From the NCBI GenBank assembly GCA_902622985.1, contig CACNSH010000001.1:1-64000 (forward strand): a stretch of 64,000 nucleotides of DNA. The letters run 5' to 3'. Both the position numbers and the translations under genes were made by a program. The stretch is from an uncultured Pelagibacteraceae bacterium (GTDB lineage Bacteria > Pseudomonadota > Alphaproteobacteria > Pelagibacterales > AG-422-B15). A model generated the notes under the pieces. That model made no database searches. It had not been told where the DNA came from and was given only the letters and a program-made list of their open reading frames with translations. This document shows positions 40,549-60,401 of the stretch, in pieces. Within the stretch, counting starts at the first letter, position 1; each line of letters opens with the position of its first letter.

Positions 40549-41676
40549 ATGTATAAAGTTCAAATTTCTGGAACCGGCCTTTACACTCCTAAGGAAAAAA
40601 TCTCTAATGAGGAATTGGTACAATCATTCAATAAATATGTTGATGAATTTAATGAAATAAATTCAGAAGATATTAAAAATGGAAAAACCCAAGCTTTGGA
40701 AAAATCCAGCGTTGAATTCATCGAAAAAGCATCGGGTGTTAAATCAAGATATGTACAAAATAAAACAGGAATTCTAGATACTTCTTTTATGAGGCCTAAA
40801 TTGAGAGAAAGGTCAGAAGAAGAATTATCTAATTTAGCTGAGATGGGAGTTATTGCTGCTAAAGATGCAATTAAAAACTCAAACATCGATGTAGAAGATA
40901 TTGATGCAGTAATTGTAGCTTGTTCAAATCTTGAACGTGCCTACCCAGCAATTGCAATTGAAATACAAAATGCACTGGGTATTAAGGGTTTTGCTTTTGA
41001 TATGAATGTTGCATGCTCATCGGCAACTTTTGGAATTCAAACTATCTTCGATATGATCAAGTCTGGGAGTATAAAGTCTGCTATCATGATTAATCCTGAA
41101 ATTTGTACCGGACATTTAAATTTCAGAGATCGAGACTGTCATTTTATTTTTGGAGATGTTGCAACTGCAGTTATTCTAGAACGTCTTAATGAAGAAAATA
41201 TTAGAGAAAACTCCTATGAAATAATTGGTACGAGATTATTAACTAAGTTTTCAAATAATATAAGAAATAATTATGGCTTTTTAAATAATTCATCGCCTGA
41301 TGGCGTTGGTCAGTCAGACAAATTATTTCATCAAAATGGACGAAAGGTATTTAAAGAAGTTGTTCCAGAAGTTTCTAACTTGATCAAATCTCACTTAGAA
41401 GAAAATAACTTATCGGCCAATGATCTCAAAGGCATGTATCTTCATCAAGCCAACGAGAATATGAATGTTTTAATTTCGAAGTATGTATTGGGAAAAGATG
41501 CCCCAAAAGAATTAGCACCTGTAGTTTTGGATGAATATGCAAATACAAGTTCAGCTGGTTCAATTATTGCCTTTCATAAATACAATAGATCATTAAATAA
41601 AAATGATTTAGCAATTATATGTTCATTTGGAGCTGGTTATTCAGTTGGAAATGTAATTGTAAAAAAGATAGCTTAA
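40549..41676 (+). CDS. Beta-ketoacyl-ACP synthase III-like protein
   Basis: Thiolase-fold condensing enzyme of 375 residues with the KAS III triad: Cys156 in DMNVACSSATFG, His in YLHQANENMN, and Asn in YANTSSAGSI. Housekeeping FabH is about 320 residues. Here an extra stretch at about residues 25-60 (KYVDEFNEINSEDIKNGKTQ) precedes the usual ASGVKSRYV loop, as in the longer FabH-like group. It may start fatty acid synthesis or make a specialised 3-ketoacyl product; sequence does not decide. Its stop interlocks with the convergent HD-domain gene. Confidence 0.85.
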   Translation: MYKVQISGTGLYTPKEKISNEELVQSFNKYVDEFNEINSEDIKNGKTQALEKSSVEFIEKASGVKSRYVQNKTGILDTSFMRPKLRERSEEELSNLAEMGVIAAKDAIKNSNIDVEDIDAVIVACSNLERAYPAIAIEIQNALGIKGFAFDMNVACSSATFGIQTIFDMIKSGSIKSAIMINPEICTGHLNFRDRDCHFIFGDVATAVILERLNEENIRENSYEIIGTRLLTKFSNNIRNNYGFLNNSSPDGVGQSDKLFHQNGRKVFKEVVPEVSNLIKSHLEENNLSANDLKGMYLHQANENMNVLISKYVLGKDAPKELAPVVLDEYANTSSAGSIIAFHKYNRSLNKNDLAIICSFGAGYSVGNVIVKKIA

Positions 41677-42224
41677 AAATTTGGCTCTTTAGAAAATAAT
41701 CTTCTCACCATTGGTTCAAAATGATCTAACGGGAAGGATTCATAATTAGGATCAAAAGATTTTTGATCCCACTTTTCACAAAAGTCGACCGCATCTTGAT
41801 AGTATGGGTGATCCTTAAATTTATCTCGTGAATTTCTATCTTTACCTGAATGATGAGCATAATAATATTCTTGAAAAAGCCCATGATGCAAAATAATCCA
41901 ATGAACCTTTTCAGAAACATACGGTCTTAAAACAGCAGCTATGAGCTGACTGTGATTGTATGGAGCAAGACTGTCTCCTATATCATGCAACAATGTAGCA
42001 ACAATCATTTCTTCATCTGCCCCATCTTTTTCAGCTCTGGTTGCTGATTGCAAAGAATGCTCAAGTCTTGTTACTTGGTAGCCGTCCACTGAATTATCTA
42101 AGTTTTTTAATGACTCTAAAACTCGATCAGGAAGTTCATTTATGTATTTTTTTTCATATTCAGCCAAAAGTTCATAATCTTCTTTTGATCCTTTTTTCAT
42201 TTCGGTAAACTTGACTGTCTTCAT
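41673..42224 (-). CDS. HD-domain mixed-valence diiron oxygenase-like protein (TmpB/PhnZ-like)
   Basis: HD-domain protein of 183 residues. The ligand set is visible: His56 (TRLEHSLQSATRAE), His80-Asp81 (LLHDIGDSLAPYNH), His91, His113/His114 (ILHHGLFQEYY) and Asp153 (CEKWDQKSF). Length, the LEHSLQSATRA-x-DGA segment and the 24-residue His-to-HD spacing fit PhnZ and TmpB. These are diiron oxygenases that break the C-P bond of 1-hydroxy-phosphonates. Its start overlaps the stop of a TmpA/BBOX-like hydroxylase gene by four bases, the same pairing as in TmpAB. An ordinary HD phosphohydrolase is the alternative; the substrate is inferred from context only. Confidence 0.7.
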   Translation of the reverse strand: MKTVKFTEMKKGSKEDYELLAEYEKKYINELPDRVLESLKNLDNSVDGYQVTRLEHSLQSATRAEKDGADEEMIVATLLHDIGDSLAPYNHSQLIAAVLRPYVSEKVHWIILHHGLFQEYYYAHHSGKDRNSRDKFKDHPYYQDAVDFCEKWDQKSFDPNYESFPLDHFEPMVRRLFSKEPNF

Positions 42225-43315
42225 TCTACTTCCTTGGAGAGGAGTTTATATTTACTTTCGGCAGAGTCATGGTCAATATAAAGCCCTTGAAGCCACCGAC
42301 TTCCTTCAGATGTATTGTAGCTTCTTCTTCCATGCAAAGTTCTGTAATTATTCATAATTAATAAGTTACCAGGCTCTAAATGAAATTGTAATATATATTT
42401 ATCTGAATTGATCATTTGATGCATAACTCTTTTAGCAGCATAAAATTCTTCCAAAACCTTTGGCTCATCGTAAAATACAAAGTCTAATCTATTACTATAT
42501 TTTATTTGTTTGAGTTCTCCTCTAGCACTTAATTTTATAATTTTTCCAGTTTTTTCTAAAATAGCATCATTATCTTCAAATTTATAATTTATTAGAGTAT
42601 TTACCAGGATATCAAAAGCTTGTGGATTTTCTTTTTTTAGATCCTCTGCAACTTTGAAGCCATCTACAACTGTGGAGTCTCCGCCTTTGCAACTGTTTTC
42701 AATACAAAATAAAAATTGAATTGATGGTACTGGTTTTCTGTAGGGATTATCAGTATGCGACTCTAATTCGATGGATGTATAAGCCAAGTCATTAGGTTGT
42801 TTTTGTGACCTCACATTAAATAGCTTTCCAAAATTAGTTTCTCGAATAAACCCAATTTTTTCAGCAAATTTTATAACTTCTCCATCCTTAGCTGGCAAAT
42901 CTTCGACTACAACGTAACCATACTGATGATAAAATTTTAAAATTTCAAACAATTGCTGACTTTCGTTTACTCCATGGGCAAAACTAAATTTTTTTAACTC
43001 AGCATCATTTTTATTCCAATAAATCTTTGGCGGTAGGACATTTGATCTTGTAATTTCTGTTATTAACTTATCTAAACAATAAGTTGCACTATGGTTATCA
43101 GAAAATTCTACAAGCATTTTGTTATCTGCTAGCAGCTGAGCATTCTTTATTTGCAAATCAGGTTTAATCTTTTCAGGGTCATATAATCTTTGCAAAGAAT
43201 TTTGATCAACTTCCCCTTTTTCAATTGATCGTTCCCGTATCCACAAAGGATGTATTTTAAAAATTTCCTCTTTATCAAATACTCTTAATTCTTTTGAGTC
43301 AAAATCTAGCTTCAT
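42221..43315 (-). CDS. BBOX-like Fe(II)/2-oxoglutarate hydroxylase (TmpA-like)
   Basis: TauD/BBOX-family dioxygenase of 364 residues. It has the BBOX N-terminal domain (IFKIHPLWIRERSIEKG, without the zinc cysteines) and the catalytic jelly roll. Iron ligands are His187 and Asp189 (ELESHTDNPYRKP) and His328 (NNYRTLHGRRSYN), with the 2OG-binding Arg after it. This superfamily hydroxylates trimethylammonium substrates: gamma-butyrobetaine, trimethyllysine or 2-trimethylaminoethylphosphonate. Its overlap with an HD-oxygenase gene favours the TmpA role. The second BBOX paralog at 48650 sits with carnitine genes instead. Substrate unproven. Confidence 0.8.
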   Translation of the reverse strand: MKLDFDSKELRVFDKEEIFKIHPLWIRERSIEKGEVDQNSLQRLYDPEKIKPDLQIKNAQLLADNKMLVEFSDNHSATYCLDKLITEITRSNVLPPKIYWNKNDAELKKFSFAHGVNESQQLFEILKFYHQYGYVVVEDLPAKDGEVIKFAEKIGFIRETNFGKLFNVRSQKQPNDLAYTSIELESHTDNPYRKPVPSIQFLFCIENSCKGGDSTVVDGFKVAEDLKKENPQAFDILVNTLINYKFEDNDAILEKTGKIIKLSARGELKQIKYSNRLDFVFYDEPKVLEEFYAAKRVMHQMINSDKYILQFHLEPGNLLIMNNYRTLHGRRSYNTSEGSRWLQGLYIDHDSAESKYKLLSKEVE

Positions 43316-43331
43316 ATTTGAAAATATATGA

Positions 43332-45272
43332 TTAATAGTCTAATTCTTCAATATTTTCATATTCTGCAAGACATTCTGGATTTGCAAGAGCCTCCATATT
43401 TTTAACTTTTTTACCGTTTATAATATCTCTTACAGTCAATTCAGCTATCTTACCGCTCCGAGTTCTTGGAATATCAGTAACTTGAATAATCTTTGCAGGC
43501 ACATGTCTGATGGAGGTTGAATTTTTAATATTTTCCTTGATATTGGCAACTAATTTATCATTTAGATGACTTTTGGCTTTAAGGGTTATAAATAAAATAA
43601 TTCTGACATCATCATTCCATTCTTGCCCAACCACAATCGATTCATTGATATCTTCTAGTTTTTCAACAGACCTATATATTTCTGCAGTACCAATTCTAAT
43701 ACCTCCAGGATTGAGAGTTGAGTCGGAGCGCCCAAAGATTATGAAACCCTTATTTGCTGTTTTAATTGCATAGTCACCTTGTGTCCAAATATTGGGAAAT
43801 TTTGAAAAATATGATTTTATATATTTTTCTTTATTAACATCATCCCAGAACCCAATTGGCATTGAAGGAATTGCTGATTTGCAGACTAGTTCTCCTTTTT
43901 GCTGAGTACTAACCCCATCATCATTAAATATATCTACATCAACTCCTAAACATTCACATTGAATTTCTCCTGAAAATACTGCACCAGTTGGATCTCCTCC
44001 AACAAAACATGAAACAATGTCAGTACCGCCACTAATAGAGGCTAAATGTACGTCTTGCTTAATATTGCTATAAACATAATTAAAACTCTCACTAACTAAT
44101 GGTGATCCAGTGCTTAAAATTGTTTTTAATTTTGATAGTTTATATTTATTTGAAATTTGAATTTGGCTATTTCTTAGCGCATCAATAAACTTTGCACTTG
44201 TGCCAAAGCAAGTAATTTCTTCTTCTTCCGCCACTTTAAAAAGTGAGTCCTGATGTGGAAAAAAAGGAGACCCCTCATAAAGAACAACTGTTGCCTTAGA
44301 AGCAAGACCAGAAATAAGCCAATTCCACATCATCCATCCACAAGTAGTAAAATAGAAAAGCTTATCGTTTTCACAAATTTCACAGTGAAGTTGCTGTTCT
44401 TTCAAATGTTGGATTAATGGACCTCCGGTATTATGTACAATACATTTTGGTTTTCCAGTTGTACCGCTGGAATACAATATATACATTGGGTCATTAAACT
44501 GACATCTTTCAAAAGAGAGCTCACTCAATTCTCTATTTTTTTCTTCAAAAAAATTTAATTTTTCATCGATGAAACTTTTGTCTTTTTGAGAATAATCAAT
44601 GCATATAGATACTTCCAATGTATTAAGCTTACTCTCAACATTTTTTATTTTTTCTAAAATTTTAAATTTCTTTCCTCCATACATATAGCTGCTGGAATAA
44701 AATAAAATTTTGGGCTCTATTTGACTAAACCTATCTAATATAGCCTGTTCACCAAAATCTGGTGAACAAGAGGACCATACCGCACCAATTGAATTTACTG
44801 CAAGAAATGAAATCAATGTTTCCGCATTATTAGTTACAATGCCTACAACTCTATCACCTTTTTTAACACCGATAGATCTCAAATATTTTGCGACTAAATT
44901 CACTTTATGAATAACTTCTTCTTTGCTGTAATATTTTTTAAATCCAATTTCATTTACATAGAGTATAGGAATAGAATTTAAATTATTAATGATATTTTCA
45001 CTATAGCTAAGCTTTAAGTTTGGAAAAAATTTCTTGTCATAAATATTTTCACTTTCACTAATAGCAGGGTTTTCATTGCCGCTATAGCTTATATCTAAAT
45101 AACTCAAAAGACTCGTCCAGAATAAATTAGGCTTTGCTATACTCCAGTTAAATAAGGAGTCATATTCATAATCAAAATTTATTGAGTAACTTTTTTTGAG
45201 ATAATAATAGTATTTGACTAAGTTTGATTGTTTTCGTCTTTTTTCGGAGGCTTGCCACAGTAATTTTTCCAT
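43332..45272 (-). CDS. aacS: Acetoacetyl-CoA synthetase
   Basis: ANL-family ligase of 646 residues activating acetoacetate to acetoacetyl-CoA, the usual length for AacS. The N-terminus (FWTSLLSYLDISYSG) is of the acetyl/acetoacetyl-CoA synthetase type. The phosphate loop is YSSGTTGKPKC (about 267-277). AacS-specific GGPLIQHLKEQQLHCEI and SISGGTDIVSCFVGG follow, and the catalytic lysine is in TRSGKIAELTV. It sits 16 bases upstream of the TmpA-like gene and 25 bases after the aldehyde dehydrogenase. It fits recycling of the acetoacetate released when the divergently encoded BKACE cleaves dehydrocarnitine. Confidence 0.93.
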   Translation of the reverse strand: MEKLLWQASEKRRKQSNLVKYYYYLKKSYSINFDYEYDSLFNWSIAKPNLFWTSLLSYLDISYSGNENPAISESENIYDKKFFPNLKLSYSENIINNLNSIPILYVNEIGFKKYYSKEEVIHKVNLVAKYLRSIGVKKGDRVVGIVTNNAETLISFLAVNSIGAVWSSCSPDFGEQAILDRFSQIEPKILFYSSSYMYGGKKFKILEKIKNVESKLNTLEVSICIDYSQKDKSFIDEKLNFFEEKNRELSELSFERCQFNDPMYILYSSGTTGKPKCIVHNTGGPLIQHLKEQQLHCEICENDKLFYFTTCGWMMWNWLISGLASKATVVLYEGSPFFPHQDSLFKVAEEEEITCFGTSAKFIDALRNSQIQISNKYKLSKLKTILSTGSPLVSESFNYVYSNIKQDVHLASISGGTDIVSCFVGGDPTGAVFSGEIQCECLGVDVDIFNDDGVSTQQKGELVCKSAIPSMPIGFWDDVNKEKYIKSYFSKFPNIWTQGDYAIKTANKGFIIFGRSDSTLNPGGIRIGTAEIYRSVEKLEDINESIVVGQEWNDDVRIILFITLKAKSHLNDKLVANIKENIKNSTSIRHVPAKIIQVTDIPRTRSGKIAELTVRDIINGKKVKNMEALANPECLAEYENIEELDY

Positions 45273-45297
45273 AAATTTTACTGCTTTGATTTAAATT

Positions 45298-46722
45298 TTA
45301 AGCAATATGTAATGCTTTTGTTTCAAGATAATCTTCAAGCCCCATATCACCGCCTTCGCGGCCGTTTCCAGACTCTTTATAACCGCCAAAAGGAGAGCCG
45401 TAGTTATAACCGCCTCCGTTTACATGTACACCGCCAGCTCTAAGTTGTTTTGAAACTCTTTCTGCCCTTTCAGTGTCGCCTGTTTGTAAATATGCGGCAA
45501 GTCCGTAAGGTGTGTCATTAGCTATTTCAATAGCTTCTTTTTCATCTTCAAATGGTATTATTACAAGTACGGGACCAAAAATCTCTTCTTGAGCTACTCG
45601 CATGCTGTTATTAACATTTATGAATATAGTTGGTTTAGTAAACCAACCTTTTTCTAACCCCTCAGGTTTACCCAGTCCACCAACAAGCAGCTCGGCGCCT
45701 TCATCTATTCCTACCTGAATCATGTTTTGAACTCTATCAAATTGGATTTTATCAAATAAAGGTCCTAGATGATCTCCATCCTCTTGTGGATCTCCAACTT
45801 TAATTTCTTCAGCCGCCTTTTTTGCAATTGTAACGACTTCATCGTAGCATTTTTTTTCAACCAGTAATCTGGTAGGAGCGTCACATGATTGTCCGGTGTT
45901 AAACATACATTCATTTACAGATGCGGTTACTTTTTCCTCAAGATCACAATCTGCAAAAACTAAATTCGGTGACTTACCTCCAAGCTCAAGTGTAACTTTT
46001 TTGACAGTTTCAGCAGACTCTATTGTAACCGACTTACCGCCTCTTTTAGAGCCGGTAAACGACATCATCTCAATATCTGGATGTCTTGACATAGCTATGC
46101 CCACACCCTCGCCATCACCATGAACTAAATTGAAAACACCTGCAGGGACACCAGCTTTATCTAGTATTTCGGCATAAACCATTGCTGATAATGGCGTATG
46201 TTCTGATGGTTTTAAAATACAAGTACAGCCGGTTGCAATGACTGGCAAAACTTTTAATGTGATTTGGTTTATTGGCCAATTCCATGGAGTGATTAGACCA
46301 CATACTCCAATTGGTTCTTTTAATAAAATATCTGTATTGGATAACTCAATTTTTTCTTCATGTTTTTCTAATGCACTAATAAAACCATCCAAATGACCTA
46401 TAGCTGCATCAGCTTGGGCTTCACGTGACATTTTTCTTGGTGCACCCATCTCCATTGTCATAGCATCAGCTAAATCATCAAATCTTTCTTCTGAAATTTT
46501 TCGTATATTTTTCAAAATATTCATTCTCTCTTCTTTAGAAGTTTTTGAAAAACTCATAAATGCATTTTTAGCGGCTTTTACTGCGATATTTACATCTTCT
46601 TCATTACCTAATATGACTTCACCGATAACTTCCTCTGTGGCTGGATTTACGACAGGCATTTTTTTACTAGATTGTGGCGCTACCCATTGACCGTCAATAT
46701 AAAATTTTTGTAGATTTTGCAT
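45298..46722 (-). CDS. NAD(P)+ aldehyde dehydrogenase
   Basis: ALDH-superfamily enzyme of 474 residues. Catalytic residues are intact: Asn149 (TPWNWPINQ), Glu246 (LELGGKSPN) and Cys280 (NTGQSCDAPTR). The NGGGYNYGSPFGGYKESGNG C-terminus resembles the CddD-like ALDH subgroup rather than a textbook BetB. In this setting the aldehyde could be betaine aldehyde (from the BetA-type enzyme at 58767) or 4-trimethylaminobutyraldehyde (precursor of gamma-butyrobetaine). Sequence alone does not decide. It is the first gene of a minus-strand run with aacS and the hydroxylase/HD pair, and divergent from BKACE. Confidence 0.88.
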   Translation of the reverse strand: MQNLQKFYIDGQWVAPQSSKKMPVVNPATEEVIGEVILGNEEDVNIAVKAAKNAFMSFSKTSKEERMNILKNIRKISEERFDDLADAMTMEMGAPRKMSREAQADAAIGHLDGFISALEKHEEKIELSNTDILLKEPIGVCGLITPWNWPINQITLKVLPVIATGCTCILKPSEHTPLSAMVYAEILDKAGVPAGVFNLVHGDGEGVGIAMSRHPDIEMMSFTGSKRGGKSVTIESAETVKKVTLELGGKSPNLVFADCDLEEKVTASVNECMFNTGQSCDAPTRLLVEKKCYDEVVTIAKKAAEEIKVGDPQEDGDHLGPLFDKIQFDRVQNMIQVGIDEGAELLVGGLGKPEGLEKGWFTKPTIFINVNNSMRVAQEEIFGPVLVIIPFEDEKEAIEIANDTPYGLAAYLQTGDTERAERVSKQLRAGGVHVNGGGYNYGSPFGGYKESGNGREGGDMGLEDYLETKALHIA

Positions 46723-46737
46723 TTCAGATGATGATTA

Positions 46738-46751: not shown

Positions 46752-46790
46752 GTAATTGTAAATTAATTTTTTTTCACTAGTAAAGGAAAT

Positions 46791-52322: not shown

Positions 52323-52324
52323 GA

Positions 52325-54733
52325 ATGCAAACTCATGCTAAAGTTGTTGTTATTGGCGGGGGAGTTGTAGGTTGCTCTATTCTTTTCCATTTAGCAAAGT
52401 TTGGGGTGAAGGACTGCGTTCTCCTTGAGCGAAAAGAATTAACAGCAGGATCCTCATGGCATGCCGCAGGAAACGTTCATGTCATTTCTTCAGATCCAAA
52501 CATATCCAGACTGATGGCATATACAATAAACTTGTACAAGGAAATTGAAGAGACTTCAGGTCATTCAGTTGGCTTTAAACCAAGTGGAGGGTTTTATTTA
52601 GCCTCTAATGAAGTTTGGTCTGATTATCTTAAAAGAGAAAGAACAAAAGCCAGATATATGGGTCTTGATCAAGAGTTTATCTCATTAGAGGAGGTTGCAA
52701 AAAAAAATCCTCTTATCGATCCCAATAAATATATTTCAGCTTTGTGGGATCCGATCGATGGAGAAGTAGATCCATCAGGTGTCACATATGCATTTGCAAA
52801 ATCTGCAAAAGTTCATGGCGCTAACTATTACACAAATACTGAGGTTAAAGACACTAAGCAAAGAGAAGATGGAACCTGGGATGTGTTTACTGATAAGGGC
52901 AATATTCATACAGAAATTGTAATTAATGCTGCAGGACTTTGGGCGAGAGAGGTCAGTAAACTTGCTGGATTAAATTTGCCTGTACAGCCAATGGAGCATC
53001 ATTATTTAATCACTGATACAATTCCAGAAATAGCAGCGATGCCTAAGGGAACAAGGCTACCAGTTGGAACTGATTTTGATGGTAATATCTATTTTAGACA
53101 AGAAGGACAAGGCATGTTGCTTGGCACATATGAACATAAGTCTACTCCTTGGAAAGTTCAGGGAACCCCATTAGATTTTGGACATGAACTGTTGGAACCA
53201 AAATTAGAAAATATTCAAGATCGATTAGTCATTGGTTTTGAGAGAATGCCAGCTTTGGAAAAAGCAGGAATTAAAAATATTGTTAACGGCCCTTTTACAT
53301 TTGGTCCTGATGGAAATCCTCTCATTGGACCAGTTCCAGGTATGAGAAATTATTGGGTAGCAGTCGGTGTTATGGCCGGGTTCTGTCAAGGAGGAGGTGT
53401 TGGCAAATGTATTGCAGAATGGATTATTGATGGTGAACCTTCCATAGATGTTTGGGCGATGGATGTCGCACGGTTTGGTGATTATGCATCTCCACATTAT
53501 GGAACAATTAAATCATCTGAAAATTATGAACGAAGATTTATTATGACATTTCCAAATGAGACTTTGCCAAAAGGAAGGAAACAAAAAACTACAGCTTTAT
53601 ATGATCGCTTCGTTAACATGGGAGCAGTTATGGGTGACAGCTTTGGACTCGAAAATGTTCTATGGTTTGCTAATAATCCTGATGATGCTTACGAAGAACC
53701 AACTATCAAGCGCTCTCGATCCCATAACTATGTTTCAAATGAAGTAAAAAATGTAAGAGAAAACGTTGGAGTAACAGAGATTGCTAATTTTTCTAAACAT
53801 GAATTTAAGGGAAAAGACTCAAGAAAATTTTTGGATTATATTTTGGCAGGTAGAATACCTAAAGTTGGACGCATAGCACTAAGTCCAATGCTATCTAAAA
53901 AAGGTAAATTATATGGGGACCTTACAGTTTCGTGTATTAGTGAAAATCATTTTATGGTTTATGGATCTGGTGCCGCTCAGGAAATGCATCGACGATGGTT
54001 TGAACAACATCTAGATCAATATGAGGTCATTTATAAAAACAGATCTGATGATTATCACGGCCTTGCTATTTCTGGCCCAAAGTCTAGAAATTTACTGCAA
54101 TTATTGGTAAGAGAAGATGTTTCTAATGAGTCATTTAAATTTAGAGATTCTAGACAAATGTTTGTTGCTGGTGTTCCTGCATTAGTCAACCGGTTGTCAT
54201 TTACTGGAGAATTGGGATATGAAATATATGTAGCTCCACACTATCAAATCAAGCTGTATGAGGCTATTGAGGATGCAGGAGAAGAATTCAACATTAAACC
54301 TTTTGGCGGAAGAGCTTTGATGTCTATGAGACTAGAAAAAAATTGGGGCGCATGGACACTAGATTTTAGACCTGACTATACTCCAAAAGAAACTGGCCTT
54401 TCTGCATTTATAAATTGGGATAAAGATTTTATTGGTAAAGACGCTGCAATTAAAGATGATAGCAATCACAGATTATTTTCCTTGGTAATTGAAACTGACA
54501 ACATAGATGTGACTAGCAATGAAGCTGTTATGCAGAATGAAGTATGTATCGGATATGTAACATCTGGAGGCTTCGGCCACTATGTGCAAAAAAGTATTGC
54601 TTTTGCATACTTGAACAATGATTTATTAAAATCCAAAGAAGTTTTGCAAGTTGAAATAAATGGAGAGTTTTATAATGCCTCAATTGTTGATAATGCTTGT
54701 TATGACCAAACCGGTAAAAATTTAAGGCAATAA
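52325..54733 (+). CDS. Dimethylglycine dehydrogenase-like flavoenzyme with GcvT domain
   Basis: Two-domain protein of 802 residues. The N-terminal FAD oxidoreductase (VVVIGGGVVGCSILFHLA) contains AGSSWHAAGNVH, whose His46 matches the histidine that binds FAD covalently in DMGDH and sarcosine dehydrogenase. The C-terminal half (from about residue 430) is an aminomethyltransferase/GcvT folate-binding fold (NRLSFTGELGYEIYV, MSMRLEKNWGAWTLDFRPDY). It would oxidise dimethylglycine to sarcosine and pass the one-carbon unit to tetrahydrofolate. Sarcosine as substrate is the alternative. The BHMT neighbour favours dimethylglycine. Confidence 0.88.
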   Translation: MQTHAKVVVIGGGVVGCSILFHLAKFGVKDCVLLERKELTAGSSWHAAGNVHVISSDPNISRLMAYTINLYKEIEETSGHSVGFKPSGGFYLASNEVWSDYLKRERTKARYMGLDQEFISLEEVAKKNPLIDPNKYISALWDPIDGEVDPSGVTYAFAKSAKVHGANYYTNTEVKDTKQREDGTWDVFTDKGNIHTEIVINAAGLWAREVSKLAGLNLPVQPMEHHYLITDTIPEIAAMPKGTRLPVGTDFDGNIYFRQEGQGMLLGTYEHKSTPWKVQGTPLDFGHELLEPKLENIQDRLVIGFERMPALEKAGIKNIVNGPFTFGPDGNPLIGPVPGMRNYWVAVGVMAGFCQGGGVGKCIAEWIIDGEPSIDVWAMDVARFGDYASPHYGTIKSSENYERRFIMTFPNETLPKGRKQKTTALYDRFVNMGAVMGDSFGLENVLWFANNPDDAYEEPTIKRSRSHNYVSNEVKNVRENVGVTEIANFSKHEFKGKDSRKFLDYILAGRIPKVGRIALSPMLSKKGKLYGDLTVSCISENHFMVYGSGAAQEMHRRWFEQHLDQYEVIYKNRSDDYHGLAISGPKSRNLLQLLVREDVSNESFKFRDSRQMFVAGVPALVNRLSFTGELGYEIYVAPHYQIKLYEAIEDAGEEFNIKPFGGRALMSMRLEKNWGAWTLDFRPDYTPKETGLSAFINWDKDFIGKDAAIKDDSNHRLFSLVIETDNIDVTSNEAVMQNEVCIGYVTSGGFGHYVQKSIAFAYLNNDLLKSKEVLQVEINGEFYNASIVDNACYDQTGKNLRQ

Positions 54734-54748
54734 AAAAATTTAGTAGAA

Positions 54749-55774
54749 TTAATCCTTAGATTTTTGCAAAATATCTATAATTTTGTTTTTTGATACTGAG
54801 CCAACAAAATTGTTTTTCTCATCAATTACGTTAAGACCGGATTGACTTTCAAGTATTGCCGGCAAGCAATTTTCAATACTATCATTTACGTTTACAGTTG
54901 GATTAGAATTTGCTCGTTCACCTCCTTGGTCAAGAATTGTCTTGATTTTTAAAACCTTTATACGATTAACATCCTTAACAAAATTGGCCACATATTGATC
55001 AGCGGGTTTTAAAAGAATTTCCTCTGCATTTCCATCTTGAACAAGTTTTCCGCCATTGAGTATAGCTATTCGGTCGCCTAATTTTAGTGCCTCATCGAGG
55101 TCATGAGTTATGAACATAATTGTTTTATTTAAATTCTTTTGTAAGTCCAGTAATTGGTCCTGCATATCAGTTCTTATTAATGGATCAAGCGCACTAAAGG
55201 CTTCGTCCATTAGCAATATATCTGGATCAGTAGCTAACGCCCTAGCTAAACCTACTCTTTGCTGCATTCCTCCTGACAATTGATTTGGGAATTTATTTTC
55301 AAAACCGGTTAAACCAACTTTTTCGATCCAGTACATTGCTCTTTCTATAGAATCTGACTTATCTAGATTTTTTATGCTCAATCCAAACTGGACATTGTCT
55401 AATATATTTTGATGAGGAAATAGTGCAAAGCGTTGAAAAACCATCCCTGTTTTATTTCTTCTAAACTCTAGAAGATCCATTTTATTAAGTTTAGTAATAT
55501 CCTCTCCATCAACTGTGACCGTTCCCTCGGTTGGCTCAATCAATCTATTAATGTGTCTTATCAAAGTAGATTTTCCTGACCCTGATAATCCCATTACAAC
55601 TTGTATTGAATGCTCCTTGATATCTAGAGAAATATTATCCAACCCAAGAACATGATTATATTTTGATAATAACTCGTCTTTATCAACACCATCTCTAACT
55701 ATGTCTGTGTACTCTCTTGGTCTTGATCCAAAAATTTTATACAAATTTTCTATCTTAATCTTTATCTCACTCAT
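54749..55774 (-). CDS. proV: Betaine-type ABC transporter ATP-binding protein (ProV/OpuAA)
   Basis: ATPase of a quaternary-amine ABC importer. I use ATG 55774 (341 residues). A longer reading from 55831 would lie in the permease gene. Walker A is GLSGSGKSTLIRH, the signature is LSGGMQQRVGLARALA, and Walker B is DILLMDEAFSALDP. The N-terminal extension YKIFGSRPREY and a C-terminal regulatory region with a partial CBS-like segment (NFVGSVSKNKIIDIL) are typical of ProV. It overlaps the permease stop by eight bases. Confidence 0.92.
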   Translation of the reverse strand: MSEIKIKIENLYKIFGSRPREYTDIVRDGVDKDELLSKYNHVLGLDNISLDIKEHSIQVVMGLSGSGKSTLIRHINRLIEPTEGTVTVDGEDITKLNKMDLLEFRRNKTGMVFQRFALFPHQNILDNVQFGLSIKNLDKSDSIERAMYWIEKVGLTGFENKFPNQLSGGMQQRVGLARALATDPDILLMDEAFSALDPLIRTDMQDQLLDLQKNLNKTIMFITHDLDEALKLGDRIAILNGGKLVQDGNAEEILLKPADQYVANFVKDVNRIKVLKIKTILDQGGERANSNPTVNVNDSIENCLPAILESQSGLNVIDEKNNFVGSVSKNKIIDILQKSKD

Positions 55775-56663
55775 TTGCGCCAGCCCTATATTGCTGCATT
55801 CTTTTGCCAAATGACTGAGAAACCCTGTCAAATATGATCGCCAAAGCTACAATAGCCAAACCATTGAGAAGGCCCATTGTAAAATATTGATTGGTGATGG
55901 CTTTTAAGACTGGTTGCCCCAATCCCTTAACCCCAATCATTGAAGCAATAACTACCATTGCAAGTGCCATCATTATTGTTTGATTAATACCAGCGAAAAT
56001 TGTTGGTAAAGCTAATGGAAGCTGTACTCTAAATAATTTTTGAGTTCTATTTGCACCAAATGCATCTGCGGCTTCTAAAACTTCTTTATTAACTTCTCTA
56101 ATACCAAGATCAGTAAGTCGAATTATTGGCGGGATTGCATAGATTATAACTGCAAGTAAACCAGGAATTTTACCAATACCCAATAACATAACAACTGGAA
56201 TGAGATACACAAAACTTGGCATCGTTTGCATAATATCTAAAATGGGAGTAATTGCGGCTCTCGCCCTATCAGATCCTGACATTAATATGCCAATTGGTAT
56301 ACCTAGGCCGATAGACATTAGTGTGCAAACACCAATAATACTGACTGTGGACATCGTATCATCCCACATTCCAAAATATCCAATTAATAAAAAAGCAATT
56401 AAAGATGAAATAGTTAGAGCGATGCTTCTACTTCCATAATAAATCAATAATAAGAAAACGATTATTACGATAGGCCATGGAGAATTTTGTAGTATTTTTT
56501 CAAACCATACTAAGAAATAAAGCACTGGATCAAAAACCGCTTCAATTGTATCGCCATATTCACGTGAAAAGTTTCGGTAAGCGCCATCAAGAGACTTCTT
56601 AAATAGGCGAAGACTCTCCTTACTCATTTCAGGAAATGAAATAAAAAATTCGGTAAAGTTCAT
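55767..56663 (-). CDS. proW: Betaine-type ABC transporter permease (ProW)
   Basis: Inner-membrane permease of 298 residues with about six to seven helices. The binding-protein-dependent transport domain contains LMSIGLGIPIGILMSGSDRA and the ATPase-contacting loop DAFGANRTQKLFRVQLPLALP, then IFAGINQTIMMALAMVVIAS. The N-terminal soluble stretch resembles ProW. Its ATG lies only seven bases downstream of a 10-bp hairpin that separates it from proX, probably lowering its expression relative to the binding protein. Confidence 0.93.
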   Translation of the reverse strand: MNFTEFFISFPEMSKESLRLFKKSLDGAYRNFSREYGDTIEAVFDPVLYFLVWFEKILQNSPWPIVIIVFLLLIYYGSRSIALTISSLIAFLLIGYFGMWDDTMSTVSIIGVCTLMSIGLGIPIGILMSGSDRARAAITPILDIMQTMPSFVYLIPVVMLLGIGKIPGLLAVIIYAIPPIIRLTDLGIREVNKEVLEAADAFGANRTQKLFRVQLPLALPTIFAGINQTIMMALAMVVIASMIGVKGLGQPVLKAITNQYFTMGLLNGLAIVALAIIFDRVSQSFGKRMQQYRAGANE

Positions 56664-56670
56664 ATAGATA

Positions 56671-56696: not shown

Positions 56697-56711
56697 ATAT
56701 TATTTTTTTAA

Positions 56712-57728
56712 TTATAACGCTGCTTCAATTTTAGCTTTCGCATTACCGTCAACCCAGCTGTGCCATTCTGTATAGTTTTTCAGAAAATGTATAGCTGTGT
56801 CTTCGCCAGATGCTTGATTGTCATCTTTCCAAGCTAATAAAGCATTAACAGTGCTGTTTGGAAGTGCTCTCTTTGAAATGTATTCCATTCCAAGATCAGA
56901 ACTATTTTTAAAGTTATCAGTTACAACAGTGTATACTTCAGAAACAACCCATGCGTTAGGTTTTGGATCTGCACATCCGTCTTGAGAAGTACAAGTGTCC
57001 CACTCTTCTTTACTGTGTTCAACACCAAAGCTTAGTTTCTTAAGTGGATATTTGCCAAGAACTGCTGTAGGAGCCCAATAGTATCCTAGCCATCCCTCTT
57101 CTTTATTATATGCTTCACCGATAGCACCAGCTAATGCACCACCTGATCCAGGATCAACTAGTCTCCATCCTTTTGCTTCCATATCATACGCTTTAAAGAG
57201 ATTTCCGGTACTAATTTGACAGTTCCAGCCTGATGGACATGTATAAATTGCTCCATCTCCACCTTCCGGATGAGGGAAAAGTTCAGGGCGCTCTATAACG
57301 TCATAAACCGTTTGGATATCAGGATTTGCATCAGCCATGTACTGAGGAATCCACCATCCTTCTTCACCAGTGTCAGACAGTACCTCAGCTGCATAATGCA
57401 AACGACCCTCACCTACTGCATTATCTAGAGCTATACGAACTGAATTAATCCAGAGTTCAGGAGCTACATCCGGCTCACCTTTTTCCATCATTGATGTTGC
57501 TGTTGGCATAGTATCGCCGGGTACAAGTTCAACATTACAACCATACCCATTTTCTAATACTATTTTATCTACATGAGCAAACATTTCAGCTGATGCCCAA
57601 TTCATTTCTGCGACAGTAATTGTGCCACAATCAGCTACTTCCTGATTCCTGTCGCAACTAACTGCAAAAATAACTGCAAAACCTGCTAAAAATATTCCAA
57701 TTGCAGATTTTTTAAAAAATTTATTCAT
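56712..57728 (-). CDS. proX: Betaine-type ABC transporter substrate-binding lipoprotein (ProX/OpuAC family)
   Basis: Periplasmic binding protein of 338 residues. A signal sequence ends in FAVSC (Cys25), predicting a lipoprotein. Many tryptophans are placed as in quaternary-amine cages (Trp44, Trp93, Trp125-126, Trp213, Trp218). Three cysteine pairs (34/64, 164/170 in CPSGWNC, 246/252) could form disulfides. The family includes binders of glycine betaine, carnitine, choline and TMAO. Location beside carnitine and betaine genes favours those ligands. An AGGAG site precedes the ATG. Confidence 0.9.
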   Translation of the reverse strand: MNKFFKKSAIGIFLAGFAVIFAVSCDRNQEVADCGTITVAEMNWASAEMFAHVDKIVLENGYGCNVELVPGDTMPTATSMMEKGEPDVAPELWINSVRIALDNAVGEGRLHYAAEVLSDTGEEGWWIPQYMADANPDIQTVYDVIERPELFPHPEGGDGAIYTCPSGWNCQISTGNLFKAYDMEAKGWRLVDPGSGGALAGAIGEAYNKEEGWLGYYWAPTAVLGKYPLKKLSFGVEHSKEEWDTCTSQDGCADPKPNAWVVSEVYTVVTDNFKNSSDLGMEYISKRALPNSTVNALLAWKDDNQASGEDTAIHFLKNYTEWHSWVDGNAKAKIEAAL

Positions 57729-57753
57729 TTTAATCTCCTAATTTATATCTTTA

Positions 57754-57819
57754 ATTATAATTGAAACATATATATGTAAGTGCTTCCACATAAAAAAAAA
57801 TTAAATTATGTTACATAAT
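57754..57819 (-). promoter_or_regulatory. proX promoter region with two palindromes
   Basis: On the minus strand a perfect TATAAT (57759-57754) lies about 26 bases before the proX ATG. Just upstream is the 12-bp palindrome ACATATATATGT (57766-57777). Further upstream is ATTATGT-T-ACATAAT (57805-57819), a perfect 7-bp inverted repeat about one base. No good -35 is seen. The palindromes sit where an activator or repressor could bind, but AT-rich DNA makes chance palindromes common. Confidence 0.35.
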
Positions 57820-57843
57820 TAATTAGATAAATGTCTGATTTAA

Positions 57844-58722
57844 TTATTTTTTTACTGAATAGATCTCGATTAATGGTGCGCTCATTACGAATATTGCACC
57901 AATAAACTCTCTAATCGAGATTATTTCATTTGCAAGCAGATAGGCAGATATAACGCCAATAACAACTTCGAACATTAATAGGATCCCCGCGCGTCCTGGA
58001 TCAACTTGATCCTGACCATAGGTGACAAGCCAGTAACCTGGCAATAACCAGATAAATGCGAATATTAAAATTATCAAAATAGTATTCTTTAAAATATCAT
58101 AGTTAAATCCTGAAAGTATTTGCCCATCTGGTAAGAATGTTGCAATAACAACAAAAAGACCCCCAATTAAAATAAAAACTGAAGTACCGAAATTTACATC
58201 AAGTTCCTCATTTATTCTTATGAGTGTTGCACAGATTGACCAGAGAAATCCTGAGAGAATTCCAAACAGATCTGCAAGTGTACTAGGCATAAAATTTCCT
58301 TGATCCAACCCAGTTATAATAAACAGACCTATAAAACCTGAAGAAATTGAAAAAAACCTATAAATGTTTAAGGCCGCTCTTAGAAAAATAATTTCAATTA
58401 AAGTGCTCCATACAGCTGTTAAATAAAAAAAGATTAAGACTCTTGCAACATTACCTCTAATTAAACCTTCATTATAAAGACACATTGCAGCCGCTCCTGC
58501 TGAAGCTGCGACTATTGTAAGAATTAAATTTCGATTAGTTAATTTTGATATATTTTTGTATGAAAAAAATAATAAAAATAACCCAGCAATAGTGAAACTT
58601 AAAGTGAGCGGAATTGCATTATTATAGGCATATTCATTAAGTAGCCTTAATGGATACCACCACGTACCCCACAATAATGTTGAAAGTACAATTGCATAAT
58701 TGGGGTTTAAATTTTTTAACAT
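57844..58722 (-). CDS. DMT superfamily (EamA) permease
   Basis: Membrane protein of 292 residues with about ten predicted helices in two EamA-type halves (first half beginning LNPNYAIVLSTLLWGTWWYP, second with ADLFGILSGFLWSICATLIR). Drug/metabolite transporters of this kind export or import small metabolites and their substrates cannot be read from sequence. It lies upstream of proX on the same strand and is divergent from betA, with a 16-bp palindrome overlapping its start codon. A role in betaine-related metabolite traffic is only inferred. Confidence 0.85.
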   Translation of the reverse strand: MLKNLNPNYAIVLSTLLWGTWWYPLRLLNEYAYNNAIPLTLSFTIAGLFLLFFSYKNISKLTNRNLILTIVAASAGAAAMCLYNEGLIRGNVARVLIFFYLTAVWSTLIEIIFLRAALNIYRFFSISSGFIGLFIITGLDQGNFMPSTLADLFGILSGFLWSICATLIRINEELDVNFGTSVFILIGGLFVVIATFLPDGQILSGFNYDILKNTILIILIFAFIWLLPGYWLVTYGQDQVDPGRAGILLMFEVVIGVISAYLLANEIISIREFIGAIFVMSAPLIEIYSVKK

Positions 58723-58743
58723 AAGCTTATGTTGTACTATAAT
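58718..58743 (+). promoter_or_regulatory. Candidate betA promoter with 16-bp palindromic operator
   Basis: AACATAAGCTTATGTT (58718-58733) is a perfect 16-bp palindrome overlapping the divergent permease ATG. It is followed on the plus strand by TATAAT (58738-58743), 24 bases before the betA ATG. A weak -35 (TTTAAC, 58715-58720) would place the palindrome in the spacer, a common repressor position. Confidence 0.45.
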
Positions 58744-58766
58744 TACAAACTTTGGTAAAATTAGTT

Positions 58767-60401
58767 ATGCAATTTAATTCTTATAATTATATTATTATTG
58801 GTGCCGGAAGTGCGGGTTGTGTTCTGGCAAATAGACTTTCAGCTGATCCAGAGATAAATGTATTGTTAATAGAGTCAGGTCCATCGGATAAAACATGGAA
58901 AACCTCAATGCCAGCAGCTTTATTATACACAATGCATGACCCAAAATATAATTATTTATACGAAACTGAGCCTGAACCGTTCATGAACAATAGAAAAATG
59001 TTTTGCCCAAGAGGAAAGATGTTGGGAGGAAGTTCATCACACAACGGTATGGTTCATGTAAGAGGAAATCCAATGGATTTTGAAAACTGGGCTCAAAAAG
59101 ATCTTAAGTCATGGAATTATAATAATGTTCTTCCGTATTTTAAAAAATCAGAGTCAATTGAAGGATTAGATGAAACTTATAGGAATAAAAGCGGTCCTTT
59201 AAAACTATCTCGATCTTCGGAAGGCAATGAATTGAGTAAAGTCTACCTAGAAGCGGCAGAACAAGCCGGCTATGAGATAAATAATGACATGAATGGATAT
59301 AAGCAAGAGGGATTTGGTCTAATGGACACCACTATTTATGGAGGCAGAAGACAAAGTACGAGTGTAACTTACTTGCATCCAGTTATTAACAGAAGAAATC
59401 TTACCGTCATTACAAACACAATAGTAAACAAAGTTATCATTGAAAATAATAAAGCCGTTGGGGTTGAATGTACTACAGGAAGAGAGAGAAAAAAAATACA
59501 TGCTGAAAATGAAGTGATATTATCAGCGGGAGCAATAAATTCACCTCAACTTCTAATGCTTTCAGGTATAGGAAATGCTGAAGAACTAAAAAAATTAGAT
59601 ATTTCTGTTCAACATGACCTAAGAGGTGTAGGTGAAAATTTACAGGATCATCTTGAAACTTATTTACAATATGAGTGTACAAAGCCCGTTACACTTTACA
59701 CATCATATAATCCAATAAGAATGGCATTCATAGGGATAGAGTGGTTTATTTTTAAATCTGGAGTGGCAGCATATTCAAACTTAGAGACAGGTGGCTTCGT
59801 GAGAAGTAATGATATGGTTGATTATCCTAATATTCAGTATCACTTCTTTCCATCGCTTGTATTGGATCATGGAAGACAATCTCCAAGCTCTCATTCTTTT
59901 CAAGCGCATGTAGGACCAATGAGGCCAACAAGTAGAGGACATGTCAAATTAAAGTCAAACAATCCCTCAGCTTCACCCGCTATACAGTTTAATTATATGC
60001 AGACAGAGCATGATTTAAAAGAAATGAGAGATGGTATTAAAATTGCAAGGGAAATTTTTCATCAAAAAGCTTTTGATAAATATCGAGGAAAAGAAATTAA
60101 CCCTGGAATAAATTCAAGCTCTGAGGGTGATTTAAATGAATTCATTAAAAATAAAGGTGATACTGCTTATCATCCTTCTTGTACATGCAAGATGGGAAAA
60201 GATGAGTTATCTGTTGTCGATGAAGAGCTCAAAGTTTATGGGATTGAAAATTTAAGAGTTGTAGATGCTTCAATAATGCCAAATATCATTACAGGAAATC
60301 TCAATGCAACAACTGTGATGATCGCTGAAAAGGCATCTGATCTCATCCTCAAAAAAGAAACTTTACCTGGTGTAGAGAGCAGTTTTTATAGAGCAAGCTA
60401 G
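58767..60401 (+). CDS. betA: Choline dehydrogenase, BetA-type GMC oxidoreductase
   Basis: FAD enzyme of 544 residues that most resembles BetA, which oxidises choline to betaine aldehyde. FAD motif: [36 protein letters not shown] follows. The active-site His469 is in YHPSCTCKMG and Asn513 in NIITGNLNATTVMIAEK; that C-terminal segment is close to E. coli BetA as I remember it. I chose ATG 58767 over an upstream in-frame TTG. The partner aldehyde dehydrogenase could be the one at 45298. The stop interlocks with the convergent small membrane protein gene. Confidence 0.87.
   Translation: MQFNSYNYIIIGAGSAGCVLANRLSADPEINVLLIESGPSDKTWKTSMPAALLYTMHDPKYNYLYETEPEPFMNNRKMFCPRGKMLGGSSSHNGMVHVRGNPMDFENWAQKDLKSWNYNNVLPYFKKSESIEGLDETYRNKSGPLKLSRSSEGNELSKVYLEAAEQAGYEINNDMNGYKQEGFGLMDTTIYGGRRQSTSVTYLHPVINRRNLTVITNTIVNKVIIENNKAVGVECTTGRERKKIHAENEVILSAGAINSPQLLMLSGIGNAEELKKLDISVQHDLRGVGENLQDHLETYLQYECTKPVTLYTSYNPIRMAFIGIEWFIFKSGVAAYSNLETGGFVRSNDMVDYPNIQYHFFPSLVLDHGRQSPSSHSFQAHVGPMRPTSRGHVKLKSNNPSASPAIQFNYMQTEHDLKEMRDGIKIAREIFHQKAFDKYRGKEINPGINSSSEGDLNEFIKNKGDTAYHPSCTCKMGKDELSVVDEELKVYGIENLRVVDASIMPNIITGNLNATTVMIAEKASDLILKKETLPGVESSFYRAS

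What the first reader, a model, noticed from the sequence alone, without database searches (positions are those of the whole stretch)
41673..60401. A dense hub converging on glycine betaine: carnitine, choline, a TmpAB-like pair, BHMT and DMGDH, plus an importer
Within 19 kb lie a gamma-butyrobetaine hydroxylase, carnitine dehydrogenase, BKACE, acetoacetyl-CoA synthetase, a second BBOX-like hydroxylase with an HD oxygenase, an aldehyde dehydrogenase, BHMT, dimethylglycine dehydrogenase, ProXWV-type importer genes, a DMT permease and a BetA-type choline dehydrogenase. The gene families are seen in the sequence. Each activity is known for the named families. That they form one convergent pathway (several precursors to glycine betaine, then methionine and one-carbon units) is inferred. 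Three routes in one compact AT-rich genome would make this a specialised methylated-amine scavenger, and the exact combination with dddP may be undescribed.
Basis: partly seen in the sequence, partly recalled or inferred. Interest (0 to 1): 0.85.

Follow-up and report, generated by a model that had tools for sequence, protein, structure and literature searches.

The report
Betaine-salvage locus with unfamiliar oxygenase pair
A stretch of a streamlined ocean bacterium's genome holds genes for turning carnitine-like and choline-like compounds into glycine betaine; most of this is a known type of gene cluster, but two neighbouring enzymes that look like phosphonate-cutting enzymes lack the parts expected for holding a phosphonate and probably cut something else.

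Summary
The gene list is confirmed at the stated coordinates. The locus is conserved: HD gene in 43 of 53 family genomes; order kept in 12 of 14 same-family stretches read, apart from a cassette and one ALDH. A carnitine-choline-betaine island of nearly this content was published for Arctic SAR11 in 2025 (PMC12421898, passages), so the hub is a variant of a known kind.

(1) The "TmpAB-like pair" is not TmpAB. The HD protein keeps six diiron ligands and folds nearest to PhnZ, TmpB and, more weakly, MIOX, but none of 78 window-type sequences has the YxxE, H..AKRYL, QGG or RxxD signatures that 18-21 of 21 PhnZ/TmpB-type proteins carry. Its dioxygenase partner is a separate clade next to TmpA, with Asp for the anion-binding Asn in 22 of 22 rows. 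The same genome holds a PhnZ-type gene beside phnX and phnDE. (2) dddP-BHMT-DMGDH is a recent 5-kb insertion flanked by a 15-bp direct repeat.

The pair's substrate is unknown; glycine betaine is the likeliest product.

The parts
41673..42224 (-). HD-domain protein, 183 aa: probable diiron oxygenase of a class distinct from PhnZ/TmpB. Ligands H56, H80, D81, H91, H114, D153; R53, D84, Q59 invariant in alignment A1; FCEKWDQKSFDP motif
42221..43315 (-). Fe(II)/2-oxoglutarate dioxygenase ('D-type'), clade next to TmpA; overlaps the HD gene by 4 bases
43332..45272 (-). Acetoacetyl-CoA synthetase; would recover the acetoacetate released by BKACE
   Evidence: 837/639 bits; role is inference from the BKACE reaction (recalled)
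45298..46722 (-). Aldehyde dehydrogenase, substrate open (betaine aldehyde or trimethylaminobutyraldehyde); one of six matches to the BADH model in the genome
46723..46790 (.). 68-base divergent intergenic stretch between the ALDH-AACS-dioxygenase-HD run and the BKACE-CDH-BBOX run
46791..47675 (+). [quoted passage not shown]
47672..48646 (+). Carnitine 3-dehydrogenase, without the fused thioesterase domain
   Evidence: 373/414 bits
48650..49792 (+). Gamma-butyrobetaine dioxygenase with GBBH-like N domain
   Evidence: 312/415 bits; Asn at the N191 position
49777..49791 (.). Left copy of the 15-bp direct repeat TAGAATTAATCCTTA (end of BBOX)
49801..51171 (+). DMSP lyase DddP, GC3 0.425, foreign composition; first gene of the inserted cassette
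   Evidence: (788/600)
51282..52322 (+). Betaine-homocysteine methyltransferase, human type; inserted cassette
52325..54733 (+). Dimethylglycine dehydrogenase-like (DAO + FAO_M + GCV_T + GCV_T_C); inserted cassette
54744..54758 (.). Right copy of the 15-bp direct repeat (end of ProV on the other strand)
54749..55831 (-). ProV-type ATPase of a quaternary amine importer
55767..56663 (-). ProW-type permease
56712..57728 (-). OpuAC-type substrate-binding protein (ligand not predicted)
57844..58722 (-). EamA (DMT) permease
58752..60401 (+). BetA-type choline dehydrogenase
   Evidence: 745/732

Best explanation
A quaternary-amine salvage locus of a SAR11-type bacterium that converges on glycine betaine. 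Step 1 (inferred from families): an OpuAC/ProWV importer brings in trimethylammonium compounds. Step 2a (family knowledge, reactions recalled): BBOX makes carnitine from gamma-butyrobetaine, carnitine dehydrogenase makes dehydrocarnitine, BKACE splits it with acetyl-CoA into betainyl-CoA and acetoacetate, and AACS re-activates the acetoacetate; the betainyl-CoA thioesterase is not identified. Step 2b: BetA plus one of several aldehyde dehydrogenases oxidises choline. Step 2c (the new part): a D-type 2-oxoglutarate dioxygenase hydroxylates a trimethylammonium substrate, and an HD-type diiron oxygenase cleaves the bond next to the new hydroxyl, leaving a carboxylate. This is TmpAB/MIOX-like logic, but the leaving group is not a phosphonate; glycine betaine is the likeliest product, and carnitine or a close C4 relative (C-C cleavage, no CoA) is the leading but unproven substrate. 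Step 3: in one clade a recently inserted dddP-BHMT-DMGDH cassette passes methyl groups to methionine and folate and adds DMSP cleavage.
For: Families. Conserved order. HD fold: AF2 pLDDT 95.3; Foldseek ranks 1-10, the only ones with E <= 0.001, are all PhnZ or TmpB; MIOX follows at ranks 11 and 13 (probability 1.00, E 0.022 and 0.066). Six-ligand motif invariant in 27 of 27 aligned sequences, as PMC8177086 section 21 requires (section read). Not phosphonate: YxxE 0 of 78 versus 18 of 21, H..AKRYL 0 of 78 versus 20 of 21, QGG 0 of 78 versus 21 of 21, RxxD 0 of 78 versus 21 of 21; Asp at the N191 position in 22 of 22 D-type dioxygenases versus Asn in 10 of 10 TmpA whose TmpB partner is over cut-off; D-type clade 100/100 support. 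Within-genome control: a PhnZ-type HD (188/300, 177/215 and 154/300 bits on three phosphonate-HD models, so below each cut-off) beside PhnX, PhnD and PhnE, which are over theirs. Pairing: 67 of 77 HD loci have a TauD-family gene directly upstream (57 D-type, 10 SAR86-type). Product: in SAR11 genomes outside this family the pair can sit behind OpuAC/ProW genes (L074, L077), and 0 of 11 such genomes gave a carnitine dehydrogenase match at E <= 1e-15, so the product should be usable without that route; in Hellea the pair is beside an MttB-family methyltransferase. In Pseudomonas marincola it ends a one-strand run OpuAC-BKACE-CDH-thioesterase-BBOX.
Against: No biochemistry. The HD protein carries an Arg three residues before its first His in 78 of 78, which PMC8177086 (passages) calls conserved in all HD phosphohydrolases. 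In the fold search some other HD folds (tRNA-processing enzymes) reach probability 0.92-0.97, though at TM 0.43-0.48 and E 0.085 or worse. HD occurs without an adjacent dioxygenase in 8 of 77 loci (plus 2 near contig ends), and in G619, G626 and G630 no D-type dioxygenase was found. SAR86-type partners keep Asn, so one substrate may not fit all. The single-cell genomes are incomplete, so absences are soft. 42 of the 77 loci are from the window's own family. No close relative of a carnitine-operon thioesterase in the family (best 25 bits in 53 genomes).
Confidence: 0.5

Rival explanations
1. The pair is a true, divergent TmpAB: it turns 2-trimethylaminoethylphosphonate into glycine betaine and phosphate.
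For: TmpA is the best solved relative of the dioxygenase (206 bits versus 156 for human BBOX); D-type and TmpA join with 98/97 support; the HD fold is nearest PhnZ and TmpB; a basic residue at the 294 position is shared with TmpA (18 Arg + 4 Lys of 22; Arg in 10 of 10 TmpA).
Against: None of the four PhnZ/TmpB signatures in 78 HD sequences; Asn to Asp in the dioxygenase; the genome has a phosphonate locus elsewhere with its own PhnZ-type HD.
Confidence: 0.1
2. The pair converts trimethyllysine to gamma-butyrobetaine: the dioxygenase makes 3-hydroxy-trimethyllysine and the HD oxygenase cleaves C2-C3, replacing the aldolase and aldehyde dehydrogenase of eukaryotic carnitine synthesis; BBOX-CDH-BKACE then finish the route.
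For: The D-type Asp lies 3 residues before the cage Tyr and 11 before the Fe-binding His, the same spacing as substrate-binding D231 of human TMLH to Y234 and H242 (residues from PMC7764450, passages; spacing). In P. marincola the pair follows BBOX, CDH and BKACE with no aldolase or ALDH between them.
Against: TMLH's N334 is Ser in 19 of 22; the TMLD model scores only 184/268; 9 of 11 SAR11 genomes with the pair outside this family gave neither a BBOX nor a CDH match, so butyrobetaine would be a dead end; in P. marincola a class II aldolase lies nearby on the other strand.
Confidence: 0.12
3. The HD protein is a metal-dependent phosphohydrolase unrelated in function to its neighbour.
For: Arg at -3 in 78 of 78, the phosphohydrolase mark in PMC8177086 (passages); stand-alone copies in 8 loci, 4 of them in SAR11 (L071, L076, L080, L083).
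Against: All three known HD oxygenase types are matched with probability 1.00, other HD folds lower; six ligands invariant (not exclusive to oxygenases, the phosphatase YqeK has them too); TauD-family gene directly upstream in 67 of 77 loci, often overlapping by 4 bases.
Confidence: 0.15
4. The cluster is only genomic crowding in a streamlined genome, not one pathway.
For: In the third genus of the family the same genes are dispersed (L121, L122); the dddP cassette is a recent add-on.
Against: Same gene kinds recur together in unrelated P. marincola, in another SAR11 group (L190, L192) and in the published Arctic island.
Confidence: 0.1

Closest known systems
Arctic SAR11 glycine betaine genomic island (PMC12421898, passages read)
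   Same: ABC glycine betaine transporter, choline dehydrogenase, ALDH, carnitine dehydrogenase, two BBOX, BKACE and DMT transporter in one SAR11 region
   Different: That island also has a thioesterase, class II aldolase, SMR, GDPD and lactoylglutathione lyase; the passages read name no HD gene, AACS, dddP, BHMT or DMGDH. The authors found it in none of 18 other single-contig SAR11 genomes and linked it to high latitude; here a related locus is common in a family of mostly single-cell genomes
TmpA/TmpB of Leisingera caerulea
   Same: Two-gene pair of 2OG dioxygenase plus HD protein; neighbouring dioxygenase clade; same HD fold and metal ligands
   Different: No YxxE, H..AKRYL, QGG or RxxD; Asn to Asp in the dioxygenase
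PhnY/PhnZ and PhnZ1
   Same: Fold and diiron ligands
   Different: The four signatures are missing; the genome has a separate PhnZ-type gene next to phnX and phnDE
Myo-inositol oxygenase (MIOX)
   Same: Fold match probability 1.00; Pfam MIOX hit in 6 of 27 aligned sequences, best 3.2e-5, the window protein not among them
   Different: Weaker fold match than PhnZ/TmpB (TM 0.55 versus up to 0.69; E 0.022); a profile-profile test could not be made; partnered with a dioxygenase

Membership tests
TmpA/TmpB (TMAEP degradation) | HD protein over the curated TmpB cut-off | tested here: not met
   46 of 300 bits
TmpA/TmpB (TMAEP degradation) | YxxE loop (Y30, E33 in TmpB; PMC8177086 section 21, read) | tested here: not met
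   0 of 78 window-type versus 18 of 21 PhnZ/TmpB-type; Tyr49 sits at the Glu position
TmpA/TmpB (TMAEP degradation) | Signatures H..AKRYL, QGG, RxxD (their role in phosphonate binding is recalled) | tested here: not met
   0 of 78 for each; 20, 21 and 21 of 21 in PhnZ/TmpB-type
TmpA/TmpB (TMAEP degradation) | Dioxygenase over the TmpA cut-off | tested here: not met
   345 of 400 bits
TmpA/TmpB (TMAEP degradation) | Turns TMAEP into glycine betaine and phosphate | not testable with these tools
   needs enzyme assay
HD-domain oxygenases (MVDO class) | H...HD...H...H...D motif | tested here: met
   H56, H80, D81, H91, H114, D153 invariant in 27 of 27; the phosphatase YqeK shares this motif
HD-domain oxygenases (MVDO class) | Fold nearest to PhnZ, TmpB, MIOX | tested here: met
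   Foldseek ranks 1-11 and 13
HD-domain oxygenases (MVDO class) | Contrary mark: Arg three residues before the first His, reported for all HD phosphohydrolases | tested here: inconclusive
   Arg present in 78 of 78, in 0 of 21 PhnZ/TmpB-type; the passages do not say that oxygenases must lack it. Speaks against the oxygenase reading
HD-domain oxygenases (MVDO class) | Mixed-valent diiron cofactor and O2-dependent bond cleavage | not testable with these tools
   needs EPR and assay
Carnitine to glycine betaine (BBOX-CDH-BKACE-thioesterase) | BBOX, CDH, BKACE adjacent | tested here: met
   BBOX and CDH are below equivalog cut-offs
Carnitine to glycine betaine (BBOX-CDH-BKACE-thioesterase) | Betainyl-CoA thioesterase | tested here: inconclusive
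   no close relative of the P. marincola thioesterase in the own genome (no positive control) nor of a SAR11 thioesterase-like protein in 53 genomes (best 25 bits), but two 4HBT_2 proteins over cut-off in the genome
Choline oxidation (BetA-BetB) | BetA over cut-off | tested here: met
   745/732
Choline oxidation (BetA-BetB) | BADH over cut-off | tested here: not met
   six ALDH matches, best 495/669; genome 87% complete
BHMT | Best solved relative is BHMT; Zn-binding Cys kept | tested here: met
   159 bits to human BHMT; Cys217, Cys299, Cys300 aligned to Cys (Zn role recalled)
BHMT | Betaine-box residues W44, Y77, Y160 (role recalled) | tested here: inconclusive
   alignment: Phe, Tyr, Thr
DddP DMSP lyase | NF043017 equivalog cut-off | tested here: met
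   788/600

The most novel reading that the evidence does not exclude
A fourth kind of HD-domain diiron oxygenase: together with its own clade of 2-oxoglutarate dioxygenases it forms a two-enzyme, CoA-free route that cleaves a carbon-carbon bond of an onium compound (carnitine, or another trimethylammonium solute) to give glycine betaine. It occurs in many SAR11 and SAR86 genomes, and its resemblance to PhnZ may help explain why published estimates of phnZ in the surface ocean run from under 0.01% to about 20% of bacteria.
Probability: 0.33. Interest if true: 0.8.

Novelty: new variant of a known kind. Interest (0 to 1): 0.55.

Why it matters
Glycine betaine is a main osmolyte and methyl source in the ocean. 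If the pair is a non-phosphonate route to it, a set of HD genes in some of the most abundant ocean bacteria can be mistaken for phosphonate metabolism by family resemblance. The review PMC10574752 (passages read) reports surface-ocean phnZ estimates from under 0.01% to about 20% of bacteria; separating the two HD classes by the signatures listed here gives a direct way to test whether misassignment is part of the cause (whether those surveys counted this class was not checked). The dddP-BHMT-DMGDH cassette is a clean case of a DMSP-cleaving gene entering a SAR11 clade, with visible insertion ends.

Tried and rejected
Rejected: TmpAB membership (signatures). Rejected as general function: trimethyllysine to butyrobetaine, because 9 of 11 SAR11 genomes with the pair gave neither BBOX nor CDH; kept as a rival because incomplete genomes and the TMLH-like Asp leave room. 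Considered: thioesterase supplied elsewhere; two protein queries found nothing close (the second query, L084:2524-2982, was called a thioesterase by eye only), a Pfam search found two 4HBT_2 proteins. Led nowhere: a search for MIOX genes in 299 genomes rang nowhere, the 14 controls included, so no MIOX profile could be built and the profile-profile test was not done. A profile search of the PDB aligned PhnZ and TmpB mainly over the N-terminal half. A paper search for the SAG names returned none; the AEGEAN-169 paper (passages: no mention of choline, DMSP or betaine in the main text) did not settle which SAR11 subclade this is. Paper searches that could have named an HD gene with a butyrobetaine dioxygenase in SAR11 showed none in the rows listed; these were 20 of 290, 12 of 900, 12 of 69, 12 of 12 and 12 of 57 papers, in an open-access library only, and most were seen as listings. 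Own mistakes: one regular expression (H.AKRYL) was wrong and gave 0 of 21; one search corrects it. In one search L074 was put under 'other' by a regular expression; the alignment shows it is D-type, hence 57 D-type, not 56. One window-type row (L095) does not match HD.GD.

Dropped rows: the search for related loci kept the best 80 of 82 relatives, 77 distinct loci. The HD alignment A1 used the window plus 26 of 77 loci; the dioxygenase alignment used the window plus partners from 31 of 77 loci. In one search one antisense ORF (L124, 93 aa) was left out of the PhnZ/TmpB set, giving 21 (20 of the loci plus L143). The four-fold-site table used 10 of the 52 relatives, 8 with and 2 without the cassette.


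Full report
What is there. The window lies in a 1.30-Mb, 87%-complete genome in 17 contigs. Its relatives are mostly single-cell genomes labelled uncultured Pelagibacteraceae; which SAR11 subclade this is was not established. Two divergent operon-like runs leave a 68-base gap: leftwards ALDH, AACS, a TauD/BBOX-family dioxygenase and an HD gene; rightwards BKACE, carnitine dehydrogenase, BBOX, then dddP, BHMT and a DMGDH-like gene. ProVWX and an EamA permease follow on the other strand, then betA and the housekeeping genes rluD, rpoH and purA.

Conservation. The HD gene is in 43 of 53 genomes of the family, 10 of 12 of those at least 90% complete. Of 14 neighbouring stretches read from relatives, 12 (two genera) keep the order, of which 4 have the dddP-BHMT-DMGDH cassette and one (L120) lacks ALDH at this spot; in the third genus (2 stretches) the genes are dispersed. 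Outside the family, Pseudomonas marincola has a one-strand run of an OpuAC-type binding protein, BKACE, CDH, a 4HBT_2 thioesterase, BBOX, D-type dioxygenase and HD, with a GhrA-like reductase (210/403 bits) and a class II aldolase nearby on the other strand. Another SAR11 group has a HADH-like gene (by eye), ALDH, a GDPD-like gene (by eye), BBOX, ProXWV, CDH, BKACE, class II aldolase and a thioesterase-like gene (by eye) (L190, aldolase confirmed), which resembles the Arctic SAR11 island of PMC12421898 (passages read). So the carnitine-choline-betaine hub is of a published kind. That paper found the arrangement in none of 18 other single-contig SAR11 genomes and tied it to high latitude; the present family shows a related locus is common elsewhere. 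PMC12636525 (passages) also lists carnitine metabolism among genes particular to offshore SAR11 genera. I recall, but did not check, that the AG- single cells come largely from tropical and subtropical water.

The pair is not TmpAB. The review PMC8177086 (section 21 read) describes the HD oxygenases by H...HD...H...H...D and PhnZ/TmpB further by a YxxE loop. The window HD has the six ligands, invariant in 27 of 27 (assigned by alignment). Compared with 21 PhnZ/TmpB-type proteins, ten of them over the TmpB cut-off, the 78 window-type sequences (window plus 77 loci) share no substrate signature: YxxE 0 of 78 against 18 of 21 (19 if Phe is allowed for Tyr); HD.GH 0 of 78 against 19 of 21, with HD.GD in 77 of 78 instead; H..AKRYL 0 against 20 of 21; QGG 0 against 21 of 21; RxxD 0 against 21 of 21; and their own FC..WD..SFDP in 78 of 78 against 0 of 21. 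The same genome carries a PhnZ-type HD with the AKRYL, LQGG and RxxD signatures (188/300 bits on the PhnZ1 model, below cut-off) next to PhnX, PhnD and PhnE, which are over their cut-offs (283/220, 263/261, 237/217), a control inside one cell. The AF2 model (pLDDT 95.3) matches PhnZ and TmpB first (10 chains, E under 1e-5, TM 0.62-0.69), then MIOX (TM 0.55 and 0.50, probability 1.00, E 0.022 and 0.066); tRNA-processing HD folds follow at probability 0.92-0.97 and TM under 0.5. Against an oxygenase: an Arg three residues before the first His, typical of HD phosphohydrolases (passages), is present in 78 of 78, and the six-ligand motif also occurs in the phosphatase YqeK.

The dioxygenase partner. 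In a tree of 56 rows the 22 HD-partnered 'D-type' enzymes are one clade (100/100) that joins TmpA (98/97; midpoint root); SAR86-type partners are another clade, and most BBOX lie apart (the program flags long branches, L073 and L096 among them). All 22 have Asp where human BBOX has N191 and where 10 of 10 TmpA have Asn; 22 of 22 have Asp or Glu at the 296 position and Arg or Lys at 294. The trimethylammonium cage is kept as aromatic residues (F/W, F, Y). PMC7764450 (passages) names D231 and N334 as substrate-binding in human trimethyllysine hydroxylase; D231 is at the same spacing as this Asp, N334 is not matched (Ser in 19 of 22). The roles of N191 and N292 in BBOX are recalled.

What the pair may do. 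Of 77 HD loci, 57 have a D-type and 10 a SAR86-type dioxygenase directly upstream, 8 are unpaired and 2 lie near contig ends; 42 of the 77 are from the window's family. Of 11 SAR11 genomes with the pair outside the family, none gave a CDH match and only two a BBOX match at E <= 1e-15, while the four SAR11 genomes with an unpaired HD all have CDH, and in three of those four no D-type dioxygenase was found. In L074 and L077 the pair follows an OpuAC-type binding protein and a ProW permease (the L074 binding protein confirmed). These facts favour a product that needs no carnitine dehydrogenase, glycine betaine being the obvious one, and a substrate that an OpuAC-type importer brings in. Carnitine itself would fit, the pair then being an alternative to CDH-BKACE-thioesterase, but this is inference.

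The inserted cassette. dddP has GC3 0.425 against 0.17-0.27 in 19 other genes. At four-fold sites, dddP, BHMT and DMGDH differ from the window by at most 0.02 in every carrier compared (dddP and BHMT in 8, DMGDH in 4). In the most divergent carrier, G034, BKACE to KASIII differ by 0.35-0.49 while CDH and BBOX, next to the cassette, differ by 0.03 and 0.01: the swap reached into the neighbours. In several other carriers neighbouring genes are also nearly identical (for example ProV 0.00-0.01 in three), so the contrast rests mostly on G034, G046 (ProW 0.56) and G047 (HD 0.37). The cassette lies between two exact copies of TAGAATTAATCCTTA (49777 and 54744); five of five carriers checked have both copies, the eight cassette-free relatives checked have a single uninterrupted BBOX/ProV junction of similar sequence, and none of 1988 random stretch pairs of the window shares 15 exact bases. 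The repeat thus looks like a duplication of the old junction. Only dddP is compositionally foreign; BHMT at 95-98% identity in a second genus, where HD is 78-79% identical, points to transfer between genera. dddP is in 16 of 53 family genomes (one a fragment), BHMT in 21 of 53.

Gaps. Thioesterase for betainyl-CoA: no close relative in 53 genomes (best 25 bits), two 4HBT_2 proteins in the genome. BADH: six ALDH matches, none over cut-off. BHMT keeps the three Cys aligned with C217, C299 and C300 of human BHMT but has Phe and Thr for W44 and Y160 (roles recalled); PMC12478193 (passages) regards SAR11 Bhmt as human-like and not experimentally validated.

Verdict. Observation confirmed; hub interpretation partly supported and largely known; the TmpAB label is most likely wrong, and the pair it covered is the part worth following.

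Noticed in passing
window 49777-49791 and 54744-54758: Exact 15-bp direct repeat flanking the dddP-BHMT-DMGDH cassette, apparently a duplicate of the BBOX/ProV junction; the cassette's three genes include no transposase or integrase.
   Followed up: yes
L143 (G000:C2:1-9000): Separate phosphonate locus of the same genome: PhnX, PhnZ-type HD, PhnD, PhnE.
   Followed up: partly
L074:10565-11476 and, by eye, L077 and L081: EgtD-type histidine N-alpha-methyltransferase (304/291 bits for L074) close downstream of the dioxygenase-HD pair in some SAR11 genomes; meaning unclear.
   Followed up: partly
L102, L103, L104, L105, L107: Window-type HD genes without a neighbouring dioxygenase in SAR86, Oceanospirillaceae, Leptobacterium, Aliamphritea and an alphaproteobacterium; their role is unexplained.
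   Followed up: partly
L097:10551-17577: Hellea: dioxygenase-HD pair beside an MttB-family methyltransferase (Pfam MTTB) and further genes that by eye look like its corrinoid partners.
   Followed up: partly
family genomes: 32 of 53 family genomes gave no BHMT match at E <= 1e-20; two of them over 90% complete, G012 and G028, do have the carnitine genes (L119, L117), so how they demethylate glycine betaine is open.
   Followed up: no
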